A model generated the notes under the pieces. That model was not told where the DNA came from, ran no database searches, and saw nothing but the letters and a program-made list of their open reading frames with translations. A stretch of DNA of 64,000 nucleotides from Myxococcales bacterium. Its GTDB lineage: Bacteria > Myxococcota > Polyangia > Nannocystales > Nannocystaceae. The position numbers and the translations under genes are program-made. Of this stretch, positions 3,905 through 43,022 are shown piece by piece. Position 1 is the stretch's first letter, and every line of letters starts with the position of its first letter. Location: contig JAEUJW010000039.1 in the NCBI GenBank assembly GCA_016793465.1, positions 124,001 to 188,000 of the forward strand, in the 5' to 3' direction.

Positions 3905-3985
3905 GTTGAATTAATCCCCCGCCGGACGATAACCGATCGCCGCGCATCGTGGGTACGGGGCCGCTGGCCCCCGCCTGCCGGCACG

Positions 3986-5239
3986 TCAGCGGCGCCGGCG
4001 GACGAGCAGCAGCAGGGCGGCGAGGGCCAGGCCCGGGGGGATGTCGTGCGTGCGGCACCCGCCGCCCTCGCCGACGGGTCCGCCGGTGCTGGAGTCGGTG
4101 TCCGTGTCACCGTCGGTGTCGGTGTCCGAGTCGGTGTCGGGGTCCTCGGAGCCCTCCTCCAGGATCGTGAAGCGCACGCGGCCGGTGGCCGGGTTGCCGC
4201 CGTCGTCGACGGCGGTCACGCGGAGGTCGTACTCGCCGGCCGGCGGGTTCTTCAGCAGGAGGTCGAGGCGCACGTTCTCGCCCTCGTAGAGCTTCTGCCC
4301 GGCGGACGTGACGGTGATGGCGTAGAACTGCGGGTCGAGGTCGTCGACGATCTCGCCGAGCAGCGGGATCTCGACCGGGCGCACGTGGAACGAGCCGTCC
4401 TCGGGGCTGGTGATCGTCAGCGTCGGCGGCGAGGTGTCGGGCACCGCGGGGCCGAACAGGTACAGCAGCTCGCGGTAGCTGTTCTGGAAGCCGGCCTCGC
4501 AGAACATCTCGTGCACCGAGTTGCACACGCCGCTGGTCTCGACGAGGTCGGTGTTGCCGACGATCTTGTTGCAGGTGTCCTGGAAGTAGGGCGTGGCCTG
4601 GGCGACGAACGGGTGCAGGTTGTCGAACTCGCTGTCGACGTGCTCGAGGCCCCAGGTGTGCGCGGCCTCCTGCAGGATGATCGTCGCGCCGATGTTGGAG
4701 CCCTGGAAGGCGCCGGCGAAGCAGGTGTCGTTGGCCCACAGGTTGCCGCAGTCGACGTAGGGGGCGATGCCGGCGAACTCCTGGGCGCCGAGGTCGCCGT
4801 AGAGGACCATGGTGTACTCGGCGTCGTCGCCGGCGGGGCGGCGGGTGACCGCGCGGACGCCGAAGTCCTCGAGGTCCTTGCGCACGGCCTGGATGATCGA
4901 GACACGGCGCGACTCGTCGCCGATGAACGGGCCGACGTAGCCGTCGAACAGGTCGGCGAGGCTGCTGCAGTCGTGGCGGCTGTCGTTGCCGCAGCCGCGG
5001 CGCAGCACGGCGCCGTCGAAGTTGATGTAGAGCGTCTCCGGCTGGCCGGCGAACACGGGCAGGACGTCGGGGCCGGCGAGCGGGAGCTCGGCGGTGCGGA
5101 TGTGCGGGCCGGGGCGCTCGGGCGTGTCGTCCGACCACGGCGGGACGGTGTTCGCCGGGGACGCCGCGGCGAGCGCGGGCACCAGGGCCAGCAGGGGCAG
5201 CACCGGGGCAGGGTAGATCAAAACGCGCCGCGGAGCCAC
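3986..5239 (-). CDS. MYXO-CTERM protein with degenerate metzincin-like motif
   Basis: About 417 residues from a GTG at 5239. That start is chosen because it gives an Arg-containing signal peptide (MAPRRVLIYPAPVLPLLALV, cut after AAA); TTG 5221 and GTG 5203 are alternatives. It overlaps the upstream gene's 3' end by 22 bp. The central region has QEAAHTWGLEH, which copies the HExxHxxGxxH zinc signature except that the first His is Gln. Conserved Cys follow, then an Ig-like domain (TSPPTLTITSPEDGS onwards), an Asp/Thr linker, and a MYXO-CTERM tail (GGCRTHDIP, hydrophobic stretch, four Arg). It is likely a surface-anchored metallopeptidase-fold protein whose catalytic competence is doubtful. Confidence 0.65.
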   Translation of the reverse strand: MAPRRVLIYPAPVLPLLALVPALAAASPANTVPPWSDDTPERPGPHIRTAELPLAGPDVLPVFAGQPETLYINFDGAVLRRGCGNDSRHDCSSLADLFDGYVGPFIGDESRRVSIIQAVRKDLEDFGVRAVTRRPAGDDAEYTMVLYGDLGAQEFAGIAPYVDCGNLWANDTCFAGAFQGSNIGATIILQEAAHTWGLEHVDSEFDNLHPFVAQATPYFQDTCNKIVGNTDLVETSGVCNSVHEMFCEAGFQNSYRELLYLFGPAVPDTSPPTLTITSPEDGSFHVRPVEIPLLGEIVDDLDPQFYAITVTSAGQKLYEGENVRLDLLLKNPPAGEYDLRVTAVDDGGNPATGRVRFTILEEGSEDPDTDSDTDTDGDTDTDSSTGGPVGEGGGCRTHDIPPGLALAALLLLVRRRR

Positions 5240-6204
5240 ACGCCGCCGAGGCTCGGGCCGAGCTGCAGGTTCGCGCGACGGTCGGCGCGGCCGGGGCGGG
5301 TGTAGAGGACCGCGCCGGCGATCAGGCCGGCGACGCCGAGCGCGGTGAGGCCGCCGCCCAGCGTGCCGGCGAGGATGTTGGCGGTGTGGCCGTTGGCCGT
5401 GGTGATGGTGACCGAGCGGGTGAGGGCGAGGCAGCGCTCGGAGGCGTCGTTGCCGGCGCACGCCTCTTCCTGCATGGCGGTCACGTCGGCGAGCTCGCCG
5501 CGGAACTGGCGGCCCTTCATGGCGAAGCCGAGGCCCGAGGCCACGCCGGCGGCCAGCGAGAGGCCGCCGAGGGCGAGCAGCGCGGCGCCGGCGGGGCGGG
5601 TGTCGGCCGGCTTGACGATCGTCGCCGCGGCGGGCGGCTCGGGGCAGGCGTCGGCGGGTCTCTCGACGGCGGCGCTGACGGTCGGCGCCGGCGGCTTGCG
5701 GGCGTCGAGGGCGGCGAGCGAGCGCTCGATCTGCGCGAGCAGCGAGCTGACGTTCTGCAGCGAGCCGATGGTCGGGTCGCGCTCGAGCTCGACGCGGAAG
5801 TTCGTCAGCACCGACTGGGCGCGCCGCAGGTCGGCGACGTCCTTGGTGATCTCGTGGCGCCGCATGTACGCGAGGCCGACGTTGTAGAGCAGCTGCGGCA
5901 GGCGGCTGCGGTCGTAGGCGGCCTCGAAGCGGGCCACCGCGGTCACGTAGTCGCCGATGAAGTAGGCGCGCTCGCCCTCGGCGTACAGCTCCTCGGCGGT
6001 CTGCGGGGTCGCGGCGATGTCGGTCGGGCCGGCGAAGTCGCGGGGCTCGTCGGCGGCGCCGGCGAGCGGCGTCGGCGGGGCGCCCTGCAGGCCGACGGCG
6101 CCGGGCGGCGAGGTCGGCGTCGGCGCGGCGGCGACGGGCGAGGGGGCAGCGGACAGGGCGGCGGCGAGGACCGCGAGGGGGGCGCGGCGAACCAACAGCG
6201 GCAT
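5218..6204 (-). CDS. TPR-containing membrane protein
   Basis: 328 residues. A signal peptide (MPLLVRRAPLAVLAAALSAA, cut near VAA) is followed by a Pro/Ala linker. A TPR-like helical region (about 65-165) contains AEELYAEGERAYFIGDY and LLYNVGLAYMRR. A second Pro-rich linker leads to two hydrophobic segments (ALLALGGLSLAAGVASGLGF near 215 and ILAGTLGGGLTALGVAGLIA near 275). Such signal-TPR-TM proteins are common beside myxobacterial Ser/Thr kinases and are often called 'tetratricopeptide repeat protein'; the role is unknown. It is divergent from the kinase gene at 6264, with 59 bp between the starts. Confidence 0.65.
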   Translation of the reverse strand: MPLLVRRAPLAVLAAALSAAPSPVAAAPTPTSPPGAVGLQGAPPTPLAGAADEPRDFAGPTDIAATPQTAEELYAEGERAYFIGDYVTAVARFEAAYDRSRLPQLLYNVGLAYMRRHEITKDVADLRRAQSVLTNFRVELERDPTIGSLQNVSSLLAQIERSLAALDARKPPAPTVSAAVERPADACPEPPAAATIVKPADTRPAGAALLALGGLSLAAGVASGLGFAMKGRQFRGELADVTAMQEEACAGNDASERCLALTRSVTITTANGHTANILAGTLGGGLTALGVAGLIAGAVLYTRPGRADRRANLQLGPSLGGVWLRGAF

Positions 6205-31846: not shown

Positions 31847-33181
31847 TCAGTTGCAGTCGGTGTCGAGGTCGCGGCGGAAGGTGCGGCCCGATTCGAACGT
31901 GGCCAGGCGGCGGAAGCCGGCGTAGGGGCCGAAGGCGTGGAGGTTGCCGCCGTTGATCAGGGTCGAGCCGGCCGGCTGGGTGCAGTCGCCGAGGCAGGTC
32001 CAGTTGCTGCCCTCGAACAGCGGCGGGCTGGCGACCGGCGGGTCGAGGGCCCAGAACGTCTGCTCGTGGGCGTAGGTGCCGGTGCCCTCGGCGACGTCGG
32101 GCAGGGTCTCGAGGTTGAGGATGGCGGAGAAGCGGTCGCGGACGATGACCTTGGCCAGGTTCTCGCCGGCGACCACGGCGGTCAGCTCGGCCTCGCCGAT
32201 CCACTGGCCGGCGATGAACATGCCCTCGCTGGTGTTCTGCAGGAACGTGCGGCCGGTGTAGGGCTGGACCTCGGTGAGGCGGTCGGTGCCGGCGAGCATG
32301 AGGTTGGTGCCGAGCAGCGCGTACGACATGCGCATGCGGAACGGGGCCGGGAACTCCTGGCCCATGGTGCCGAGCGTGTCCCACGGCAGCTGGCGCTCCC
32401 AGGTCTCGACGTGCATGACGAGCGTGCCGGGCTCGACCCACAGCACGCCGGTGGCCAGCGTGGTGGTCGCGCAGTCGGCCGAGGTCTCGACCCACAGGAA
32501 GTTGCCCGAGATGTCGACGCTGATCACCGAGTCGGGGGTGAGCGCGTCGGGGGCCCACTGCAGGCTCCACGTGCCGACGAGGTCGAGCTCGATGAAGTCG
32601 TCGCCGAACACGCCGATCGGCGGGAACTCGTCGCCGCCGGTGTCGGTGTCGGTGTCCGTGTCGGTGTCGGTGTCCGTATCGGTGTCGGTCTCGGTGCCGG
32701 TGTCCGTGTCCGTGTCCGTGTCGGTGCTGATCGTGTCGGTGAAGATCGTGTCGGTGTCCGGGATCGTGGTGCCGGTGCTGGTGTCGCTGCTGCTCGAGGT
32801 GTAGTCGGTCGTGTACGGGTAGTCGCTGGTGTACGGGAAGTCCGACGTGTACGGGTAGTCGCTGGTGTACGGGAAGTCCGAGGTGTACGGCAGCGACGGA
32901 TCGGTGGTGTCGAGCGTCTCGTAGTAGGTCGTCGGGTAGTAGCCGTCGTCCTCGTAGTAGCAGGGGTTGTAGTTGCAGTAGTCGGTGGTCGGGAAGGTCG
33001 GGACCGAGGTCGGGAAGGTCGGCCGCGTCGGGTCCGTGGTGGTCGTGGTGGTGTCCGAGCAGCCGTCGGTCGCGCACGGGTCGATCGTGACGTCGTCCGG
33101 GCAGGCGCCGACGGTGAAGGTCAGACCGAGCAGGCCGGCGACGTGGATGGGGCGGTGTCGGAACGGGGTCATGGGTGTCAT
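31847..33181 (-). CDS. Tyr/Thr-repeat lipoprotein, tandem paralogue B
   Basis: 444 residues. The ATG at 33181 overlaps the stop of its upstream paralogue (ATGA); ATG 33172 is an alternative. Leader HVAGLLGLTFTVGAC gives a lipobox. Residues about 30-165 are low complexity: TPTFPT-type runs, five copies of PYTSDF/Y encoded by an 18-bp unit, then a (DT)n tract. The globular C-terminal 280 residues (from about PPIGVFGDD) are shared with the neighbour: WSLQWAPD, HVETWERQLPWD, MGQEFPAPFRMRMSY, NWTCLGDC and GPYAGFRRLATF. They resemble a lipocalin-like beta barrel in length and strand pattern, but this is a guess. Ligand unknown. Confidence 0.65.
   Translation of the reverse strand: MTPMTPFRHRPIHVAGLLGLTFTVGACPDDVTIDPCATDGCSDTTTTTTDPTRPTFPTSVPTFPTTDYCNYNPCYYEDDGYYPTTYYETLDTTDPSLPYTSDFPYTSDYPYTSDFPYTSDYPYTTDYTSSSSDTSTGTTIPDTDTIFTDTISTDTDTDTDTGTETDTDTDTDTDTDTDTDTGGDEFPPIGVFGDDFIELDLVGTWSLQWAPDALTPDSVISVDISGNFLWVETSADCATTTLATGVLWVEPGTLVMHVETWERQLPWDTLGTMGQEFPAPFRMRMSYALLGTNLMLAGTDRLTEVQPYTGRTFLQNTSEGMFIAGQWIGEAELTAVVAGENLAKVIVRDRFSAILNLETLPDVAEGTGTYAHEQTFWALDPPVASPPLFEGSNWTCLGDCTQPAGSTLINGGNLHAFGPYAGFRRLATFESGRTFRRDLDTDCN
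32811..32891. repeat. 18-bp tandem repeat (five copies) inside a lipoprotein gene
   Basis: GTGTACGGG recurs at 32811, 32829, 32847, 32865 and 32883 with an 18-bp period. On the minus strand each unit encodes PYTSD plus Phe or Tyr. The array is in frame, so copy-number change would alter the linker without breaking the gene. Confidence 0.85.
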
Positions 33182-34506
33182 GGGCAGTCCGTGTCGATGT
33201 CGCGGCGGAAGGTCTTGCCGGAGGCGAAGGTGGCGAGGCGCTGGAAGCCGGCGTAAGGGCCGTAGACGTAGTCGTTGTTGCCGTTGATGAGGGTCGAGCC
33301 GGACGGCTGGGGGCAGCCGCCGAGGCAGGTCCAGTTGCCGATCTCGAACTGGTCGGGGCCGGCGACCGGGGGGTCGACGCCGTACCAGGTCTGATCGTGG
33401 AGGACCACGCCGTCGCCCTCGGGGGTCGGCGGGTTGCTCTCGAGCTCGAGGGTGGCGATGAAGCGGTCGCGCACGACGACCTTGGCCTGCGGCACGCCGA
33501 TCACGAGGCCCATCAGCTCGGTCTCGCCGTTCCAGGTGCCGGCGATGTACTGGCCCTCGGCGACCGACTGCAGGTAGGCGCGCCCGGCGTAGGGCGCGGC
33601 CTCGGTGATGCGGTCGGGCGCGGCGAGCACGAGGTTGGTGCCGAGCAGCACGTACGACATGCGCAGGCGGAACGGCGGCGGGAACTCCTGGCCCATGATC
33701 GGCAGGCTGTCCCACGGGAGCTGGCGCTCCCACGTCTCGACGTGCATGACGATCTGCCCGGGCTCGACCCACACCACGCCGGTGCCGAGGGTGTCGCTGC
33801 TGCAGTCGGCGCTGGTCTCGCGCCAGATGAAGTTGCCGCTGTCGTCGATCGTGAGGATCGAGTCGAAGGTCGCGCCGTCGGGGGCCCACTGCAGGCTCCA
33901 CGTGCCGATCAGGTCGGTCTCGGTGACGTCGTCGCCGAACTCGCCGAGCGGCGGGAAGGCGTCCGTGCCGCCGGTGTCGGTGTCGTCGGTGTCGGTGCCG
34001 GAGATCGAGTCGGTGCCGGTCTCGCTGCCGGTGCTCGTGCTCGTGCCGGTGTCGGTGCCCGTGTCGGTGTCGGTCGAGAGCGTGTCGGTGTCGGTCGAGA
34101 GCGTGTCGGTGCCGGTGTCGCTGTCGGTCGACTGCGTGTCGGTGGTGGCGAGCGTGTCGGTGTCCGGGATCGTCGTCGGTTCGCTCGTGGGCGGCGGATC
34201 GGTCGTGAAGTCGCTGGTGTAGCTGGTCGCGTAGTTGGTGTCGTCCTCGTCGCACCAGTAGGACTCGCAGCAGTCGAAGGTGGCGCAGTCGTCGGTGGTC
34301 GGCGTGGTCGTGGTCGTGGACGTGCCCTCGGTCGGGCTGCCCGACGTGGTGTAGCAGTCGCCGTAGTAGCCGTAGGAGCAGTAGGAGCCCTCGTCGTTGA
34401 AGCCGTCGTCGCCCCACGTCCCGGGGCAGCCCGCCGCGGTGAAGGTCAGCGAGAGCAGGCCGACGACGGCGATGGGTCGCGAGAGCTCGACTTTTTCGAC
34501 CACCAC
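33178..34506 (-). CDS. Thr/Asp-rich lipoprotein, tandem paralogue A
   Basis: 442 residues from the GTG at 34506 (GTG 34503 is adjacent). This start gives a signal with lipobox (AVVGLLSLTFTAAGC); translation further upstream lacks signal-peptide character. A Cys/Tyr-rich patch (SYCSYGYYGDCY) and a Thr/Ser/Asp linker of about 140 residues precede a C-terminal domain homologous to the next gene (WSLQWAPD, HVETWERQLPWD, MGQEFPPPFRLRMSY, NWTCLGGC, GPYAGFQRLATF). The pair clearly arose by tandem duplication, with the linkers diverging much faster than the domains. No functional motif. Confidence 0.65.
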   Translation of the reverse strand: MVVEKVELSRPIAVVGLLSLTFTAAGCPGTWGDDGFNDEGSYCSYGYYGDCYTTSGSPTEGTSTTTTTPTTDDCATFDCCESYWCDEDDTNYATSYTSDFTTDPPPTSEPTTIPDTDTLATTDTQSTDSDTGTDTLSTDTDTLSTDTDTGTDTGTSTSTGSETGTDSISGTDTDDTDTGGTDAFPPLGEFGDDVTETDLIGTWSLQWAPDGATFDSILTIDDSGNFIWRETSADCSSDTLGTGVVWVEPGQIVMHVETWERQLPWDSLPIMGQEFPPPFRLRMSYVLLGTNLVLAAPDRITEAAPYAGRAYLQSVAEGQYIAGTWNGETELMGLVIGVPQAKVVVRDRFIATLELESNPPTPEGDGVVLHDQTWYGVDPPVAGPDQFEIGNWTCLGGCPQPSGSTLINGNNDYVYGPYAGFQRLATFASGKTFRRDIDTDCP

Positions 34507-34611
34507 GGCTTCCCCCCCGCGCGAGCGCGTCCGGCCATCATGTTGGCGAAGGCGCGGGCGAGTCAAGCGACAGGGTCGCGCGCGCGGCGGCGAGGCGCGG
34601 GAGGCCGCGGC

Positions 34612-37600
34612 TCAGCGGGCGTAGGGGAACAGGTCCTTGACGCGGACTTCGACGACCTGGGCGAGGCCGCGGAGCTCTGCGGGGACGACGCGGGTCCGAT
34701 CGCCGAGCACGCTGAGCACGGGCGGGGCCGTGAACTGCTGGATGAGCGCGGCGAGGTCGGCGGGCCCGAGCTGCTCGATGCGGGCGAGCTCGCGGGGCCG
34801 CGGGTCCGACGACTCGCCGCGGTCGGCCCAGGCCTGGACCCAGGCGGGGATCCGGCGCGGCGAGGGGCGCACGCCGCGGAGCTCCCGCAGGAGCGCGGTG
34901 CGGGCCGCGAGCACGCGACCCTCGGGCAGCGCGGGGCGCTGGAGCAGCGCGAGCAGGAGGGTCAGGGCGTCGCGGGCCTTGTCGGCCTGGGTGCCGAGGT
35001 GACCGACGAGCGCGGCGTCGTCGATCGGGCGGGCGCCGGCGTCGAGCTCGCCACCTGCCCGATAGGCCAGACCGCGGGCCTCGCGGATCTCCTGGAAGAT
35101 GAGGCCGCTCATGTCGCCGTCGAACACCTGGGTCAGCAGGCGCGCGGCGGGGCGATCGGCGACGGGCAGCGGCGGCCGCGGGATCACGACCTCGAGGTGG
35201 GCCTGGGCCATGTCGCGGTGCACGAAGTAGACGGTCGGGCGCGCGGGCACGCGGAAGCGGCGCGGGGCCGCCGGCGGGACCGGGAGGCCGGCGCCGAAGT
35301 CGAGGGCGGCGAGCAGGTCGGGGGCGAGGGTGCGGTCGGCGGCGAGGCGCGGGCCGAAGTAGTGGGTGACGTGGGCGAGGTCGGCGAGGTCGGCGAGCTC
35401 GCGCGCGAGGTCGGGGCCGCGGGCCTTGCGGAGCTGGCGGTCGCTCGGCAGCGCGAGGATCTCGCTGTCGTCGCCGCGGGCGGCGTACTCGGCGAGCGCC
35501 TCGGCGACGGCGTCGGGGTCCTCGAGCTCGTCGCGGCGCATGCTCAGGGTGTTTTTTAGTAGGTCGGCGACGGTGGCATCGGTGAAGGCGGGGCTACGGA
35601 GCCAGGCGTCGAGGAGGGACAGGCTCTGCTCCAGGCGGGCGTCGACGCCGGCGATCAGGATCTCGGTGCGGTCGGCGGACACGTCGATCTGGATGTCGGT
35701 GCCGAGCTGGTGGAGGCGGCGCTGCAGGGCCTCGGCGGACTCGTCGCCGGCGCCGGACAGCTCGAGCAGGTCGAGCGCGTGGCCGAGCAGCGGGCGCGCG
35801 CGGGTGCCGACGTCCCAGCGCATGGTGACGGAGAACAGGTCGCTGTGGGCGTTGCGCGCGGCGATCAGCGGGCCGGAGGCGAGCGCGTGGCGCACGTAGT
35901 CGCGGCCCTCGACGAGGAACGCGGGCTCGGGCTCGAGGGCGGGCAGCGCGAGGATCTCGGCGGCGTAGGGGCTGCGGCGGGCCGGGTCGATCGACACCGG
36001 GGTGATGACGGGCTTCGGCATCTTCGGCGGGTCGTGCTCGCCGTGGCGGCGGTAGACGACGACATGGTCGTCGCCGAGGTACTTGTGGGCGACGCGCAGG
36101 ACGTCGTCGCGGGTGACGCGGCGCAGGCGCTCGGGGAAGCCGACGTGCTCGGGCCACGGGCGGCCGGCGAGGTAGGCGTCGGCGATCCAGGCGACGCGTC
36201 CGCCTTGCGACTCGCGGGCCATGCGCTCGTCGATCTCGGCGTGCAGCACGACGGCGTCGAGGTCGGCCTGGGTGAACGCGCCGGACTTCAAGTCGGCGAC
36301 GACGCCGCGGAGCAGGCGCTCGACGTCGGCGAGGCGCTGGTCGTCGCGGGCGACGCCGCTCAGCGCGAGGTAGGCGCCCTCGGTCAGGACCTCGCCGTAG
36401 GCCTCGGCGTCGGGCAGGGCGCCGGACAGCACGAGGCGGAGGTTGACGAGGCCGCACACGCCGTTGTCGAGCAGCTCCTGCAGGACGTAGAGCGCGGGCT
36501 CGTCGGGGTCGCGCGCGCGGGCGGTGCGCCAGGCGATGGTGACCGACTGCTCGCCGTCGTCGAGCACGGTGCGCTCGACCCGGCCGACCGGGCCGCGCAG
36601 GTCGCCCGCGGGCGCGCCGGGGACCTGTCCCGGGCGCCATGTCCCGAAGGTCTGCTCGAGCACGGCGAGAGTCTCGGTCGGGTCGAGGTCTCCGGCGAGG
36701 ATGATGGCGGCGTTGTTCGGCAGGTACCAGCGGCGGTGCTGCTCGACCATGTCGGCGTAGGCGGGGTTCTTCAGGTGGTCGGCCTCGCCGAGGATGGTCT
36801 GGGTGCCGTACGGGTGGCCGGGGAACAGGGCGAGCCGGAGCGCCTCGTCGTGGCGGTCGTCGGGCTCGTCGAGGCTCATGTTCTTCTCCTCGTAGACGGC
36901 CTCGAGCTCGGGGTAAAACAGGCGGAACGTCGGGCGGATCAGCTGCTCGCTGGTCACGCGGGCCCAGGCCTGCAGGCGGGCGCTCGGCACGTCGGTGGTG
37001 TAGACGGTGGCGTCGTCCTGCGTGAAGGCGTTGACGTCGAGGATGCCGAGCTGGCCGAACAGGCGGTCGAACTCGTTGGGCACGGCGACGGCGGCGGCGG
37101 CCTGGGTGGCGGCGTCGATCTCGGCGAGGATGCGGGCCCGGTCGCGGCCGACGGCGCGCGGCAGGGTGCCGTAGAGCGCGGCGATCCGCTCGAGGTGCCC
37201 GGCCTCGGCGGCGGCGTCGAGGGTGCCGAGCCGCTCGGTGCCTTTAAAGAGCATGTGCTCGAGGTAGTGGGCGAGGCCGGTCGAGTGCGGCGGGTCGTGG
37301 CGGCCGCCGGCGCGGATGGCGATCCAGGCGGCGAAGCGCGGCTGCTCGTGGTCGACGCTGAGGTAGACGGTGAGGCCGTTCGTCAGGCGGTGGATGGTGA
37401 CGCCGAAGGGGTCGCCGGGGATGGGCGTGGGGAGCTCGGCGGGCAGCTCGCTGCGGGCGAGCAGGTCGGCGTCGTCGGGCAAGGACGGCGAGACGAGCGA
37501 CGGGTCGATGGGCCCGGCAGAGACGGCGGGCGGCGGTGCGACGAACTGGATGGAGTCGGAGCGGTCGGTCATGTCGCTGGTGCGCGCGGTGCAGGCGGCG

Positions 37601-37653
37601 AGGGCGAAGCAGAGGGTGGTGACACGGGCGCGCGGCACGGGCAAGCGTGTCAC
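34612..37653 (-). CDS. M16-family zinc metallopeptidase lipoprotein
   Basis: 1013 residues, GTG start overlapping the stop of the upstream TOPRIM-like gene (GTGA). The leader VTTLCFALAAC gives a lipobox Cys21. The first M16 domain has the inverted zinc motif HYLEH (His129, Glu132, His133) and a downstream Glu region YPELEAVYEEKNM, so it should be catalytic. The second half repeats the fold (ARNAHSDLFSVTMRWDVGT and later VFDGDMSGLIFQEIREARGL) without an HxxEH. This is the four-domain pitrilysin/processing-peptidase layout in one chain. It probably degrades peptides in the periplasm. The position at the end of the coupled operon may link it to quality control. Confidence 0.88.
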   Translation of the reverse strand: MTRLPVPRARVTTLCFALAACTARTSDMTDRSDSIQFVAPPPAVSAGPIDPSLVSPSLPDDADLLARSELPAELPTPIPGDPFGVTIHRLTNGLTVYLSVDHEQPRFAAWIAIRAGGRHDPPHSTGLAHYLEHMLFKGTERLGTLDAAAEAGHLERIAALYGTLPRAVGRDRARILAEIDAATQAAAAVAVPNEFDRLFGQLGILDVNAFTQDDATVYTTDVPSARLQAWARVTSEQLIRPTFRLFYPELEAVYEEKNMSLDEPDDRHDEALRLALFPGHPYGTQTILGEADHLKNPAYADMVEQHRRWYLPNNAAIILAGDLDPTETLAVLEQTFGTWRPGQVPGAPAGDLRGPVGRVERTVLDDGEQSVTIAWRTARARDPDEPALYVLQELLDNGVCGLVNLRLVLSGALPDAEAYGEVLTEGAYLALSGVARDDQRLADVERLLRGVVADLKSGAFTQADLDAVVLHAEIDERMARESQGGRVAWIADAYLAGRPWPEHVGFPERLRRVTRDDVLRVAHKYLGDDHVVVYRRHGEHDPPKMPKPVITPVSIDPARRSPYAAEILALPALEPEPAFLVEGRDYVRHALASGPLIAARNAHSDLFSVTMRWDVGTRARPLLGHALDLLELSGAGDESAEALQRRLHQLGTDIQIDVSADRTEILIAGVDARLEQSLSLLDAWLRSPAFTDATVADLLKNTLSMRRDELEDPDAVAEALAEYAARGDDSEILALPSDRQLRKARGPDLARELADLADLAHVTHYFGPRLAADRTLAPDLLAALDFGAGLPVPPAAPRRFRVPARPTVYFVHRDMAQAHLEVVIPRPPLPVADRPAARLLTQVFDGDMSGLIFQEIREARGLAYRAGGELDAGARPIDDAALVGHLGTQADKARDALTLLLALLQRPALPEGRVLAARTALLRELRGVRPSPRRIPAWVQAWADRGESSDPRPRELARIEQLGPADLAALIQQFTAPPVLSVLGDRTRVVPAELRGLAQVVEVRVKDLFPYAR

Positions 37654-38501
37654 GTGGACTCGGAGGGAGGGAAGACGGTTTCGTGGGTGCGTTCGAGCGC
37701 GTGCAGGAGGGCGGTGCAGCCCAGCATGTCGTGGGCGAGCGCGGCGAACGACTTGCCGGCGCCGAGGACCTCGTGGGTCGGGAAGCCCCGCACGAGCGCC
37801 TCATTGTGGCGCTTGCCGAGGCAGAGCTGGTCGGACGGGTGCTCGACTTCGTCGAGCGCGCCGCGGTCGTCTCGCCACGCGGCGAGCTTGTCGTGGCAGC
37901 TCGGCGAGCGCGTGCAACGGGGCTCGCCCGGACACAGCGCGGTGGCGCGGTCGGTGTGCTGGTAGAGCCAGGCCTCGATCTCCCAGTGCGGGATCACGCG
38001 GATGAAGCGGCTCATGTGCTCGCCGACGCGGGCCTCGATCTCGGCTTCGGAGAGGCGTTCGACGGTGGTTCGGGCGCGCCGCCGCGGGACCGGCGGGCCG
38101 CGATAATGGACCTCGAGCTCGCGACCGACGTGGGCGACGATGTGCTCCTCGAGGTGCGCCGCGTTCACGCTGGGCCTGCGCTGGCGTTCGCCCCACGTCC
38201 GGTCGGCGTCGACGTGGTGCAGCACGAACCCGTCGTCGCGGATGAGGGTTGCGGCGATGAGGCGGTGCAGGCGGGTGCGGGCGATGTATCGATCATTGCC
38301 GAGCTTGTCGCCCGCCCACTGGTTGGCGGCCAGGAGCTTGCGCGCGTCGTCGTTGGCCGGCTCGAAGCGGAACCTCTCCGGATCGCAGCCAGGATCGAGG
38401 TCCCTGAAGATATGTTTAATTAGGGTCTCGAGCACCTTGCCGGCCTGTGCGCTGCTGTCCTCGCCGAGCACGAGGACGGAGGCCACCGCGCTGCGACTCA
38501 C
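37650..38501 (-). CDS. TOPRIM-like (DUF4276/OLD-partner-like) protein
   Basis: 283 residues from a GTG overlapping the ATPase stop codon (GTGA). The N-terminus VASVLVLGEDSSAQAGKVLE places a Glu (Glu14) after a beta strand. GFVLHHVDADR has Asp98 and Asp100 in a DxD after a strand. PHWEIEAWLY (171-180) has two Glu in a motif typical of DUF4276-like TOPRIM proteins. Together these match the Glu...DxD arrangement of TOPRIM nuclease/primase folds that accompany OLD-like ATPases. A Cys cluster (LCPGEPRCTRSPSCHDK) near residue 190 could bind metal. It is the likely effector of the upstream ATPase. Family assignment is by motif only. Confidence 0.6.
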   Translation of the reverse strand: MSRSAVASVLVLGEDSSAQAGKVLETLIKHIFRDLDPGCDPERFRFEPANDDARKLLAANQWAGDKLGNDRYIARTRLHRLIAATLIRDDGFVLHHVDADRTWGERQRRPSVNAAHLEEHIVAHVGRELEVHYRGPPVPRRRARTTVERLSEAEIEARVGEHMSRFIRVIPHWEIEAWLYQHTDRATALCPGEPRCTRSPSCHDKLAAWRDDRGALDEVEHPSDQLCLGKRHNEALVRGFPTHEVLGAGKSFAALAHDMLGCTALLHALERTHETVFPPSEST

Positions 38502-39784
38502 CAGAGACCTCGGGTGATCAGGATCTCGCCGACCGGCTCGATCTCGGCGCGATAGGCGTCGAAGAACATCTCGGCGTCGGCCTGCGACAGGTTCTGCCAC
38601 ACGAGCTGCTCGGCGCCGTCGACGACCTCGGTCTTGCAGGCGATGAAGCGCGACTGGACCTGCTCCGCCGAGGTGAAGTCGGGGATGTAGTCGAACAGGA
38701 GCGGGTTCTGGCTGGTCAGGAAGGCCTGACGATCGCCGATGGCCTCCATGCAGGCCTCGATCCAGCGGTGGTGCAGGCCGTTGACGAGCTCGTCGGCTAT
38801 CACCACGCCGGGGGTTGTGAAGTACAGGTAGAAGAAGAAGGAGACGACTCGCTTCTGTCCGTAACTCAACAGGTCATGAGAGATCGAGTTGCCGTTCTTG
38901 CCGTAAAAGAAGAACTTGACGGCCTGGATCGTGACCTTTCGGGCCAACACGGTGCCGCTCATGGCGGAGATGTCGGGACGTAGTTCGATCTTGGCGAATT
39001 CGAGAAGTTCTGCGAGCTCGGTAAGAACACCGAGGTTGTCGGAGCTGAGCGCAGAGGAAGGCGAGAGGTCGGGATTCTTGGCGACGAGCTCACGAATAAA
39101 GGGTCCGGAGAAACGATACGGACTGTGCTTCGAATTAATTGAGACGCTGGTTTTCGGCGCCGCTATCACCGATGCCGTTGTAGCCAATGAATCCGGCCCA
39201 GCGGGGCGAGACGGTGGCGAGTTCTGGCCGGTCAGGGCATAGAACGCTCCCAGCGCCTCGTCGAAACGGAACGGTGCGACGTCGAAACGGAGGGAGTGCA
39301 AGGTCATGATGAGGCCCATGCGCTGGGCCTGTGACTCTCTGGCCCAATCTGTAAGCATATGGGCCAGTTGATGCAAGAAGTCGTATTCGAACGGCGAACA
39401 AGGCGGGTGTGATCGAGAACTCGACTTGTCCTCCATGACGGAGATTGCGAGAGAAGCGGACGTCCCGTGAAACACGAGGGTCGCAGCGTCCTGTGGGAGG
39501 AGGAGGGTGAACGAGTAGGCGAGCGAAGCGTCGGTGGTACGTTCGTTGAGGAGGATGAACTCGATTCGACATCCGTCGGCATCGATGTCGAACTCGAGGG
39601 CAAGTTCCTCACCCTCGAGTTCAGCGAGGTTCCAGCCGCAGGCCATGGCGATGAGGCCGAGCAGGGTGGTCTTGCCGCTGCCGTTCTTGCCGAGGACTAA
39701 ATTAAAACCGTCGTCGAAGCGGAGTTCGGTGCCGGGGCGGACGTTGCGGTATTTATTAATTTTTAGGCGTTTGAGCTTGACCAT
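38498..39784 (-). CDS. OLD/AAA15-like ABC-type ATPase of a putative defence pair
   Basis: 428 residues. Walker A LGKNGSGKTT (Lys38), an ABC-like signature LLSYGQKR (Ser307-Gln310), Walker B VVIADELVNGLHHRW (Asp331, Glu332) and a following TSQNP in place of the usual switch His. The DE(x)xNGLH form is characteristic of OLD/AAA15 ATPases that pair with TOPRIM nucleases. The N-terminus MVKLKRLKINKYRN is the usual first strand. The gene is visibly poorer in GC than its neighbours: three lines counted gave 50, 58 and 58 percent, against well over 70 percent around it. That suggests recent acquisition. It begins 8 nt after the sppA-like stop. Confidence 0.8.
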   Translation of the reverse strand: MVKLKRLKINKYRNVRPGTELRFDDGFNLVLGKNGSGKTTLLGLIAMACGWNLAELEGEELALEFDIDADGCRIEFILLNERTTDASLAYSFTLLLPQDAATLVFHGTSASLAISVMEDKSSSRSHPPCSPFEYDFLHQLAHMLTDWARESQAQRMGLIMTLHSLRFDVAPFRFDEALGAFYALTGQNSPPSRPAGPDSLATTASVIAAPKTSVSINSKHSPYRFSGPFIRELVAKNPDLSPSSALSSDNLGVLTELAELLEFAKIELRPDISAMSGTVLARKVTIQAVKFFFYGKNGNSISHDLLSYGQKRVVSFFFYLYFTTPGVVIADELVNGLHHRWIEACMEAIGDRQAFLTSQNPLLFDYIPDFTSAEQVQSRFIACKTEVVDGAEQLVWQNLSQADAEMFFDAYRAEIEPVGEILITRGLW

Positions 39785-39792
39785 CGTGGGCC

Positions 39793-42579
39793 TCACTCGA
39801 TCTCGACGAGGCCCGGGAGCAGCGTGAGGGCGTTGTCGGGGGGGAGGAAGAGGAGGCTGAGGGGGAGGCGGGCGAGGGCGCTGGTGATGGCGATCGGGAG
39901 GTCGGCCGCCTGTTTGGCCTGCTGGCGGGCGGTGAGCCTGGCGCGCAGGCCCCGGTCGCCCTTGTCGGGCATGACCTGGTCGAGCAGGAGGTCGACCAGG
40001 CGGCGCGGGCGGGGGAACACGCGCAGCTCGAGGTCGCGTTTGGCGGGGATGCCGGCGCGGGTCTTTAACTCTGCGACGGCCTCGTGGAGGCCGCCGTGGA
40101 GGTCCACGAGGCGCGCGGCCTTCGCGTCGGTGCCGCTGTAGACGTGGCCGCGGCCGAGCTGGTCGACCTGGTCGAGCGTCATCTTGCGGTTGTCGGCGAC
40201 GCGCTGGCGGAACAGGTCGTAGACGCGGCGCATGGTCGCGTCGATGCGGGCGCGCTGGTCGTCGGTGTAGGGCTTGTAGAGCGAGGCGATGTCGCCGTTC
40301 TTGCCGCGCTGGAAGGTGTGCGTCGAGATGCCGAGCCTGGCCAGCAGGCCCGAGAGGTCGAAGTGCAGGCTGACCACGCCGATCGATCCGGTCAGCGTGG
40401 TGGGCTGGGCGAAGATCGTCGGGGCGCCCATGCTGACGTAATAACCGCCCGAGGCCGCGAGGTCGCCCATCGACACGTTGATCGGCGGGCTGCGCTTCGG
40501 ATTCTTTAAATATGCATCGTGGGTGCGCTGGACCTCGCGCCAGATCAGGTCGCTGGCGAGGGCGCTGCCGCCGGGGCTGTTGACGCGCAGGACGATGCCC
40601 TTGCACATCGGGTCGCCGCGCAGGGTGCGGAGCTGCTGCAGGATCGTGTCGCCGCCGGTGAACTGGATGTTCAGCAGCGGGATCGTGCGGTTCTCGCCGT
40701 CGATGATGGTGCCCTCGACGACGACCACGGCGATGTAGGGGGCGACCGACCAGGTCTGCGGCTCGGGGCTGGTGTCCTCGAACCTGGCGAACTTGACGCT
40801 GGCGCCGACGGCGTCGCCGATCGCGCCGATGACCTCGTCGCGGTGCACGATCTTGTCGACGAGCTTGCGCCGCAGCGCCTGGTCGGGGCCGTGGGGGCTG
40901 TCGTCGAGCAGGCCGGCGGCGTCGCCCTTGCCGAGGCCGCGGGCCTGGGCCACGTCGGTGACGATGACGTCGTAGGTGTCCGCGAGCAGGGCGTCGCGCT
41001 GGGCCTTGTCGGCGTCGCTCGGGCCGGTCTGCGTGAACGGCTCGTGGGCGCTCTTGTACTCGGCGATGTGCAGGCCCTCGGCGCGCACGCCGAGCTTGTC
41101 GAGCGTGCCCTTGAAGTACAGCGTGGTGGCGCTGAGGCCGTAGGTCGCGAGCTCGCCGGCGGGGTGGATGAAGACCTGCTCGGCGACGCTGGCGAGGTAG
41201 TAGTCCTTCAGACCGCCGTCCTCGAGGTAGGCGAACACGTGGCCGCCGGCGTTGCGGATGCGGACGAGGGCCTGGCGGAGCTCCTGCAAGGAGGCCCAGC
41301 CGAGCCTGGTGGCGCGGGTGTCGAGCAGGAGGATCGCGCGCTCGCCGCCCCTCTCGGCCCGCTCGAGGCGCTGCAGGGTGCTGATGAGGGCGCGCTCGCT
41401 GCGGACGCTCGAGAGGTCGATGCGCTCGGCGTCGACGAGGCGCGGCCAGAACACGCGGCCCTGGCGCGCGCTGCTGAAGCGGGCGGCCAGGCCGAAGCCG
41501 TCGACGGCGTCGGACAGGCCGGCGTGGATGCCGCCGCGCACGCTGACCATGTCCCAGGCGACGGCGAGCTGGACGGCGCCGCGGATGCGTTTGATCTTCT
41601 CGCGGATCTGGTAGGTCGCGGGGTCGAGCACGGTGGCGGCGACCTGCTCGAGCTCGGCGGCCAGCTCGAGGCCCTGCCAGCGCACGGCCAGGCGGGCGCG
41701 GGGGAACACGCCGAAGTCGTTGAAGCGCTGGGGCTCGATGTCGGGGGCGCCGCGCCAGCGCGACTTGAGGCCGCCGGCGAGCTCGAGCAGGCGGGTGCCG
41801 AGCGGGCGCACCGCGAGCTCGCCGGTGATCGCCAGCTCCTGCGGGAGGCCGCCGTCGGCGGTGAGGTCGGCGGGGCCGAGGCGGCCGACCACGCCGAGCG
41901 AGGCGTAGTTGCGCAGGCGCAGCATGAGGCCGAGGTCGAGGTCGGGGCGGCGCAGGTTGCCGTTGTCGGTCAGCCAGTGCACGCCGAGGCCGAACGACCC
42001 GAAGCGGCCGTCGCCGCCGGCGAGCGCGAACGAGACCTTGGTGAACGGCACGTTGCGCCACGCGAGCGCGTCGTAGTAGCCGCCCTGGAAGCCGGGCGTG
42101 ACGCGCTGGACGCCGATGCCGGCGGCGAAGCCGAGGCCGAGGTTGAGCGAGAGGAAGCCGCCGAGGCCGCCGCCGCGGGTGAACGGGGAGGTCGAGCGGT
42201 AGCCCTGGAGGACGAGGTCGAGGCCCTTGACGCCGGACAGTAGCGCCGGGTTGAGCTCGATGCTGCTGGCGTCGCCCTGGCCGCTGTAGTCCTTGACCGG
42301 GCGGTCGACGCCGTCGCTGGCGGCGCGGTCGAGCGCGACCGGCTCCTGGGCGCCGGCGCCGGCGGGGGCGAGCAGGGCGGCGAGGGCGGCGAGCACCAGC
42401 GGGCTGCGGCGACCTGGCCGCGAGGACAGGCGCGGCGTCGCGGCCAGTGGTTCGCGATCTGGCCGCGGGGACAGGCGCGGCGCGAGGGCCGGCGCCGGTT
42501 CGCGACCTGGCCGTCGGGACAGGCGGGCGGTCGCCGTGCGCGACGGATCGTGACCTGGCTCCTGGGGCAGGTGGATCAT
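39793..42579 (-). CDS. Second beta-barrel/SppA fusion protease
   Basis: 928 residues from an ATG overlapping the GroES-like stop (ATGA). An unusual leader of about 55 residues with three RLSxRPxRE repeats precedes the hydrophobic signal (SPLVLAALAALLAPAGAGA). The beta-rich domain (about 80-390) starts with IELNPALLSGVKG, again with the 'NPA' motif. The SppA part has Lys in AEYKSAHEPF and Ser in DLAASGGYYVSMG, so the dyad is intact; the intervening VLRVNSPGGSALASD is the family's GG motif. It is a paralogue of 28233-30923 with the same architecture, retained in a different operon. It probably cleaves signal-peptide remnants or misfolded envelope proteins. Confidence 0.82.
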   Translation of the reverse strand: MIHLPQEPGHDPSRTATARLSRRPGREPAPALAPRLSPRPDREPLAATPRLSSRPGRRSPLVLAALAALLAPAGAGAQEPVALDRAASDGVDRPVKDYSGQGDASSIELNPALLSGVKGLDLVLQGYRSTSPFTRGGGLGGFLSLNLGLGFAAGIGVQRVTPGFQGGYYDALAWRNVPFTKVSFALAGGDGRFGSFGLGVHWLTDNGNLRRPDLDLGLMLRLRNYASLGVVGRLGPADLTADGGLPQELAITGELAVRPLGTRLLELAGGLKSRWRGAPDIEPQRFNDFGVFPRARLAVRWQGLELAAELEQVAATVLDPATYQIREKIKRIRGAVQLAVAWDMVSVRGGIHAGLSDAVDGFGLAARFSSARQGRVFWPRLVDAERIDLSSVRSERALISTLQRLERAERGGERAILLLDTRATRLGWASLQELRQALVRIRNAGGHVFAYLEDGGLKDYYLASVAEQVFIHPAGELATYGLSATTLYFKGTLDKLGVRAEGLHIAEYKSAHEPFTQTGPSDADKAQRDALLADTYDVIVTDVAQARGLGKGDAAGLLDDSPHGPDQALRRKLVDKIVHRDEVIGAIGDAVGASVKFARFEDTSPEPQTWSVAPYIAVVVVEGTIIDGENRTIPLLNIQFTGGDTILQQLRTLRGDPMCKGIVLRVNSPGGSALASDLIWREVQRTHDAYLKNPKRSPPINVSMGDLAASGGYYVSMGAPTIFAQPTTLTGSIGVVSLHFDLSGLLARLGISTHTFQRGKNGDIASLYKPYTDDQRARIDATMRRVYDLFRQRVADNRKMTLDQVDQLGRGHVYSGTDAKAARLVDLHGGLHEAVAELKTRAGIPAKRDLELRVFPRPRRLVDLLLDQVMPDKGDRGLRARLTARQQAKQAADLPIAITSALARLPLSLLFLPPDNALTLLPGLVEIE
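42410..42572. repeat. Imperfect 45-48 bp repeat in the sppA-like leader
   Basis: CGACCTGGCCGCGAGGACAG-like units begin near 42410, 42455, 42503 and 42550. They are in frame and encode the RLSxRPxRE leader repeats. The last unit is diverged. Confidence 0.6.
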
Positions 42580-43022
42580 TGCAGGTGGTCTTCCGAGATG
42601 ATGTCGACGATGGCGAGCACGTGGCGCACGGACAGCAGGCGCAGGGTGTCGTCCCACGGCACGGTGACGCCCTGGTCCTTGGCGAACAGCACCTGGGCGC
42701 CGACGGGGATGCCGCTGACGTTCTCGCCGAGGTCGGGTTTGTCGTCGTCGTCGTCCTCGCCGTCGTCGACCACGTAGGTCGACTTCGGCATGGTGCGCGC
42801 GACCTCGACGACCTCGCCGAGCAGGGCCTCGCTGTGGCTGTCCTTGGCGCCGGCGGGCAGGTACAGGCCGCTCTCGGAGCGGTCGGGGCCTTTGATCAGG
42901 CGCACGAGCACGCGCGGACCGAGCGGCTGGATGTGCCGCGAGACCTTGGCGGGGCGGGCGATGTCGGGGGCGACGATCTCGGGGCCGTCATCGGGTCGCT
43001 TCGGGCGCGGCTTGTTCGACAT
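42576..43022 (-). CDS. GroES-like co-chaperonin with acidic insertion
   Basis: 148 residues, against about 95 for GroES. The Cpn10 core is recognisable: IQPLGPRVLVRLIKG, the mobile-loop region DRSESGLYLPAGAKD, LLGEVVEVA, and the ending VRHVLAIVDI. A 35-residue N-terminal extension and an acidic insertion (DDGEDDDDDKPDLGE) are added. No GroEL gene is adjacent. It heads the coupled operon of barrel/SppA, ATPase, TOPRIM-like and M16 genes. It may be a specialised co-chaperonin or a structural relative that does not cap GroEL. Confidence 0.75.
   Translation of the reverse strand: MSNKPRPKRPDDGPEIVAPDIARPAKVSRHIQPLGPRVLVRLIKGPDRSESGLYLPAGAKDSHSEALLGEVVEVARTMPKSTYVVDDGEDDDDDKPDLGENVSGIPVGAQVLFAKDQGVTVPWDDTLRLLSVRHVLAIVDIISEDHLQ

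What the first reader, a model, noticed from the sequence alone, without database searches (positions are those of the whole stretch)
37650..39784. Low-GC OLD-like ATPase plus TOPRIM-like partner: candidate defence pair
The ATPase has Walker A, ABC-like signature (LLSYGQKR) and a DExxNGLH Walker B of the OLD/AAA15 kind; the partner has Glu14, Asp98/Asp100 and a PHWEIEAW motif consistent with a TOPRIM/DUF4276-type nuclease. The genes overlap by GTGA. Three counted lines of the ATPase gene have 50-58 percent GC in a window well over 70 percent. ATPase/TOPRIM pairs such as OLD, Gabija and PARIS are anti-phage systems; this pair matches none of them clearly by eye, and the Cys cluster near residue 190 of the partner is an extra.
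Basis: partly seen in the sequence, partly recalled or inferred. Interest (0 to 1): 0.72.

Follow-up and report, generated by a model that had tools for sequence, protein, structure and literature searches.

The report
Uncatalogued myxobacterial ATPase–nuclease gene pair
Two overlapping genes, an ABC-type ATPase and a nuclease-like partner with a probable TOPRIM-type fold, form an accessory module scattered among myxobacteria that resembles known anti-phage ATPase/nuclease systems but matches none of the profiles tested, so it is a good candidate for a new bacterial immune system.

The parts
38498..39784 (-). ATPase gene, 428 aa, ABC/AAA_21 type
   Evidence: (AAA_21 53.1 bits, cut-off 27; AAA_23 40.4, cut-off 27), model
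37650..38501 (-). partner gene, 283 aa, GTG start, TOPRIM-like nuclease (predicted)
38498..38501 (-). GTGA overlap of ATPase stop and partner start
   Evidence: nearest start codon lies within 7 nt of the ATPase stop in 24 of 27 paired loci (mechanical nearest-start rule)
39668..39691 (-). Walker A GKNGSGKT (residues 32-39)
38915..39604 (-). variable middle of the ATPase (residues 61-290): 20-21% mean identity within the 12-row Nannocystis-type clade, with a better kept stretch 161-185 (49%) around RFDE
38849..38869 (-). ABC signature LSYGQKR (residues 306-312)
38771..38806 (-). Walker B and following VVIADELVNGLH (residues 327-338)
38460..38462 (-). partner Glu14, right after strand 1 (TOPRIM glutamate position)
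   Evidence: 75/76, one gap
38202..38210 (-). partner Asp98-Ala99-Asp100, DxD after strand 3
   Evidence: 76/76 and 75/76
37965..37979 (-). partner IEAWL motif with Glu176
   Evidence: Glu176 76/76
37749..37754 (-). partner Lys250-Ser251
   Evidence: K 55/76, S 74/76
39793..42657 (-). flanking open frame: S49 peptidase (SppA-like); start codon not settled, 39793-42537 was scanned
   Evidence: PF01343 206.4 bits; synteny
34612..37653 (-). flanking open frame: M16 peptidase, other side of the site; start codon not settled
   Evidence: PF05193 and PF00675; synteny

Best explanation
A two-gene ATPase/nuclease module. The ATPase works through paired ABC heads and, through its variable middle, senses a trigger from a phage or other mobile element; it holds the TOPRIM-like partner inactive, or delivers it, and on ATP binding or hydrolysis licenses it to cut nucleic acid (DNA or a tRNA) with metals held by Glu14, Asp98, Asp100 and Glu176, which stops the infection. 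Shown here: the coupling of the two genes, confident models, conserved acidic positions, patchy distribution, erosion at its own site, low GC of paired copies, and loss of ATPase motifs in the clade without the nuclease. Inferred: nuclease activity, oligomer, trigger, target and anti-phage role.
Confidence: 0.55

Rival explanations
1. A Rad50/Mre11-, SMC- or Wadjet-like DNA maintenance or anti-plasmid pair: the ATPase clamps DNA and the TOPRIM-like partner cleaves particular DNA structures, without phage-specific sensing.
Against: ABC heads resemble one another, so rank among them says little. The partner was found in a minority of genomes of both classes and the module is eroded or absent at its site in 6 of 7 genomes of the genus, unlike a core repair system. 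The predicted ATPase has no helix longer than 16 residues, so no coiled coil.
Confidence: 0.2
2. A selfish addiction (toxin-antitoxin-like) pair: the partner is a toxic nuclease kept in check by the ATPase and kept by killing of cells that lose it rather than by defence.
For: Two overlapping genes, patchy, low GC; in the four eroded sites only ATPase remnants are detected and the partner is not, as if the harmful gene went first.
Against: Full-length ATPases persist without the partner: the nine-member clade near host GC, and L025 with GKT and LSYGQ intact. No ATPase relative on plasmid records. Defence modules of this kind can also be toxic, so the two readings overlap.
Confidence: 0.12
3. 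A divergent form of an already catalogued system: a PADLOC HEC-01 (AAA_21 ATPase + DUF4276) or PARIS variant that current profiles miss, with no new principle.
For: The HEC-01 pair in L105 has the same gene order with a short overlap; marginal HEC-01B matches in the partner family (PDLC04210 in 9 of 76 rows, best E 0.0027; PDLC04188 in 2, best 0.0019); hhalign of partner and DUF4276 36% (52% in global mode), confident only around IEAWL, five column-shuffled controls at most 0.2%.
Against: The window partner hits no PADLOC model at E 1 and misses DUF4276 (13.9 against 30.2 bits); other, plainly unrelated profiles reach similar E-values in single rows. The A2 ATPase profile found nothing at 1e-3 in the 46 DUF4276 and RloB loci searched, the full HEC-01A-type ATPase of L105 included. 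hhalign with DUF4435 0.7% and RloB 1.2%.
Confidence: 0.3

Closest known systems
PADLOC HEC-01 candidate (HEC-01A AAA ATPase + HEC-01B, DUF4276)
   Same: ATPase gene followed by an overlapping small gene (L105); DUF4276 rows show an E near the N-terminus and an E.EA-L-L motif; Gln in the TSQNP/ATQSP motif
   Different: No HEC-01B or DUF4276 assignment for the window partner; partner has DxD where the 8 DUF4276 rows printed have DxY; partner 283 aa against 227 in L105
PARIS (AriA + AriB)
OLD / Gabija GajA
   Same: ABC ATPase plus TOPRIM with E and DxD; partner model closest to Bp and Xcc OLD C-terminal regions
   Different: OLD and GajA carry both domains in one protein (PMC10568477, passages); here two genes; no PF20469 hit; neighbours are peptidase genes, not a helicase
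AbiL / RloB-type pairs
   Same: ATPase plus TOPRIM association (AbiL named in PMC12409363, passage); AbiLi profile hits the ATPase at 3e-9; some RloB rows read FELWLLLHF
   Different: No PADLOC or RloB match of the partner; hhalign with RloB 1.2%

Membership tests
TOPRIM fold nuclease | invariant Glu at strand 1 and DxD at strand 3 (definition: PMC6755086 passages) | tested here: met
   E14 75/76 (one gap), D98 76/76, D100 75/76; strands 7-13 and 91-96 in the model
TOPRIM fold nuclease | invariant Gly following strand 2 (same source) | tested here: not met
   strand 2 is 44-48; Pro48 72/76; no conserved Gly among positions 46-52
TOPRIM fold nuclease | four-stranded parallel alpha/beta fold matching solved TOPRIMs | tested here: inconclusive
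ABC-type ATPase (AAA_21/OLD/Rad50 group) | Walker A, LSxGQ signature, Walker B DE | tested here: met
   AAA_21 53.1 bits over cut-off 27
ABC-type ATPase (AAA_21/OLD/Rad50 group) | H-loop histidine (recalled feature) | tested here: not met
   the motif in that place reads TSQNP, Gln359 57/57; place assigned by motif order, not by structure
PARIS | AriB effector (DUF4435, recalled) | tested here: not met
   no PADLOC model and no PF14491 at E 1; hhalign 0.7% against 5 DUF4435 rows
PARIS | AriA ATPase | tested here: inconclusive
   AriA profile E 8.6e-16, but mad3, PtuA and AbiLi profiles also match
PARIS | ATPase and TOPRIM on separate genes | tested here: met
OLD family (classes 1-3) | ATPase and TOPRIM in one polypeptide | tested here: not met
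   two genes
Gabija | UvrD-like GajB gene next to GajA | tested here: not met
   adjacent window genes are S49 and M16 peptidases
DUF4276 (PF14103) | score over Pfam's gathering cut-off | tested here: not met
   13.9 bits against 30.2; 5 of 76 rows match at E 0.1, best E 0.006
HEC-01 | HEC-01B profile match of the partner | tested here: not met
   window partner none at E 1; up to 9 of 76 rows marginal, best E 0.0019
HEC-01 | HEC-01A profile match of the ATPase | tested here: inconclusive
   not among the 25 best of 103 PADLOC families shown for the window ATPase; lower rows not shown
anti-phage defence system | protects against phage when expressed | not testable with these tools
   needs a plaque assay
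anti-phage defence system | found in defence islands | tested here: inconclusive
   few PADLOC hits among 116 neighbour proteins; no background rate was measured

The most novel reading that the evidence does not exclude
A separate, so far unnamed class of split ATPase/TOPRIM immunity centred on myxobacteria, in which two well kept ATPase ends frame a swappable, rapidly diversifying sensor of about 230 residues, partners and ATPases are re-sorted by recombination, and one lineage has lost the nuclease and turned the ATPase into a domesticated protein without Walker A lysine and signature serine.
Probability: 0.35. Interest if true: 0.7.

Novelty: new variant of a known kind. Interest (0 to 1): 0.5.

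Why it matters
If it is immunity, myxobacteria carry a recurrent ATPase/TOPRIM system that the defence library tested here (PADLOC-DB 2.0.0) does not name. The family is a natural experiment: paired and partnerless ATPases, eroded copies at a fixed site, and a variable region framed by well kept ends, which makes 'what does the ATPase sense' directly testable with chimeras.

Tried and rejected
PARIS, OLD, Gabija, DUF4276/HEC-01 and AbiL/RloB membership were tested and not accepted (Membership tests). A Cys (zinc) site as a family feature was rejected: 7 of 76 rows have all three Cys. A third gene shared by most loci was not found among the flanks of the 38 loci and the window; the list was cut at 40 groups, and groups of four loci (such as L002, L008, L021, L022) were not followed up. 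Phage, plasmid and viral-contig relatives: none (partner in phages; ATPase in plasmids; partner in viral contigs; the other combinations were not searched). Partner against solved structures by sequence or profile: nothing at E 5, best E 0.12 with an unrelated chain. Foldseek on viral models: nothing below E 0.32; a phage RloB-like protein at rank 13, E 1.1. Partner remnants in the eroded sites: none above the best shuffled match. VIA rows shown for the partner do not include GajA; this excludes nothing. Literature: 'DUF4276' with 'defense', 'DUF4276', 'HEC-01' with 'PADLOC' and 'myxobacteria' with 'anti-phage defense systems' and 'ATPase' gave no paper in the open library, whose supplements were not searched; this does not show absence from print. 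An AbiL search matched mostly unrelated words. Papers: passages only of PMC10568477, PMC12409363 and PMC6755086; all others seen as search listings only.

Rows dropped or not examined: matches without a fetched locus were not examined for an ATPase. Trees: 41 non-identical pairs with both genes and partner of at least 200 aa (L069, L071 and duplicates left out) plus 10 metagenome pairs matched only by equal contig length, which is my inference. Tree: L022, L070, L035 and ATPase pieces under 350 aa left out. A3 holds 76 partners, A4 57 ATPases of those available; the neighbour scan used 116 of 194 mechanically called genes. GC comparison: the ATPase was taken as at most the last 1311 bases of its frame and the partner as the next 750 bases.

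Full report
Observation. Two genes on the minus strand, ATPase 38498-39784 (428 aa) and partner 37650-38501 (283 aa), overlap by GTGA. They lie between an S49 (SppA-like) peptidase frame ending at 39793 and an M16 peptidase frame. The ATPase has 59.2% GC against 72.3% for the window.

Profiles. The ATPase passes the AAA_21 and AAA_23 cut-offs and matches AriA, mad3, PtuA and AbiLi profiles without belonging clearly to any. The partner has nothing over a cut-off in Pfam and nothing assignable in PADLOC, NCBIfam or PHROGs, and no relative in the PDB by sequence. One search found 64 partner relatives (the window's own copy included), one search found 669 ATPase relatives, of which 120 are listed and only the best 7998 candidates were scored; the few names given by sources are mainly myxobacterial (Nannocystis, Byssovorax, Polyangiaceae, Cystobacter, Archangium, Sorangium).

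A conserved unit. A scan of genome contigs with two ATPase peptide patterns gave 38 loci. The partner profile matches directly downstream in 27 of 38, and the nearest start codon lies within 7 nt of the ATPase stop in 24 of those 27. Conversely, of 26 loci fetched with the partner profile (25, one), 24 hold the ATPase directly upstream; L069 and L071 hold partial partner matches and no ATPase match. The two sets share loci; without identical partner copies 41 complete pairs remain, the window included. No third gene is shared by most loci.

Accessory and foreign-looking. The partner profile matches in 26 of 317 genomes of the class around G001 (a Nannocystis MAG) and 17 of 147 of the class around G002 (Archangium); only part of the first-look candidates were scored in each genome, so these are lower bounds. 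In 27 of 27 paired loci the ATPase is poorer in GC than its flanks (mean -0.10), the partner in 25 of 27 (mean -0.06); 11 ATPases without partner average 0.00.

The site itself. In G001 (L001) the order S49, ATPase, partner, M16 is the same as in the window, with flanks 70% and 66% identical but ATPase 41% and partner 45%. Seven genomes of that genus are held. In the other six the S49-M16 gap holds eroded ATPase in four (G115 87.8 bits, G119 84.7, G116 54.7, G117 43.1; the highest score over 20 two-base-chunk shuffles of each of eight gaps was 33.5) and none in two (G114 no match, G118 25.0 bits). Partner matches in these gaps stay below the shuffled maximum of 30.8 bits. In three other genomes of the family the two peptidase genes lie within 90 nt of each other or overlap (L081, L102, L103). 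So the module looks like an old resident of this junction that decays repeatedly, or a repeated arrival there; that the partner goes first is suggested, not shown.

Anatomy of variation. Within 12 Nannocystis-type rows the ATPase is 72% identical at residues 1-60 and 71% at 291-428, but 20% at 61-160 and 21% at 186-290, with 49% at 161-185; the partner ranges from 30 to 64%. This fits exchange between alleles and a diversifying sensor; relaxed constraint is not excluded.

ATPases without partner. Eleven of the 38 loci lack the partner. Nine form one clade (SH-aLRT 100) in which Walker A reads GRT instead of GKT and the signature LG instead of LS; L035, which lacks the N-terminus in the frame scored, has the same signature change. 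L025 is separate and keeps GKT and LSYGQ. Paired ATPases keep GKT wherever that motif was in the stretch aligned, apart from the interrupted L022. Loss of the nuclease and loss of ATPase motifs thus go together, in what may be one event.

Comparison. An AAA_21 ATPase + DUF4276 pair in the same class (L105) matches PADLOC's HEC-01A and HEC-01B (4.5e-135 and 2.9e-67) and is the nearest catalogued arrangement. The window partner is not a HEC-01B or DUF4276 member by score; hhalign links it to DUF4276 at 36%, 52% in global mode, mainly over the IEAWL region, while five shuffled controls reach at most 0.2%. PARIS, with separate ATPase and TOPRIM genes and a tRNA-cutting AriB (PMC10568477 and PMC12409363, passages), is the best functional analogy.

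Verdict. An uncatalogued, mainly myxobacterial ATPase/TOPRIM-like pair, most likely an immune module that works like PARIS or HEC-01. The fold is probable, the gene unit and its accessory nature are shown, the defence role is inferred. Neighbours give no support for defence islands.

Noticed in passing
L023, L026, L028, L029, L032-L034, L036, L037: Clade of ATPases without partner (titles mainly Myxococcaceae and Archangiaceae) with Walker A Lys to Arg and signature Ser to Gly, near host GC: a possible domesticated pseudo-ATPase.
   Followed up: partly
L022:3445-6441: In Corallococcus interemptor the ATPase gene is interrupted in its variable middle by a gene on the other strand (3933-5555) that looks like a transposase by eye.
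   Followed up: no
L036: A contig titled Comamonas sp. KCTC 72670 carries an ATPase and upstream neighbours very close to those of Myxococcus; the record may be mislabelled or contaminated.
   Followed up: no
L004, L009, L030: Pairs in MAGs titled Planctomycetota: transfer between phyla or binning error.
   Followed up: no
window 38702-38716 (ATPase residues 357-361): TSQNP with Gln359 in 57 of 57 rows where related ATPases usually have a His (recalled); the HEC-01A-type ATPase of L105 has ATQSP.
   Followed up: partly
window 31847-34566 (-): Adjacent, similar lipoprotein-like reading frames with long Thr-Asp repeats; no Pfam hit for the one scanned, 33178-34566.
   Followed up: no
L029:7312-7689 (-): Convergent gene behind a partnerless ATPase looks like a RelE/ParE-type toxin by eye.
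   Followed up: no
window 42576-43022 (-): Cpn10-like chaperonin frame upstream of the S49 peptidase gene.
   Followed up: no
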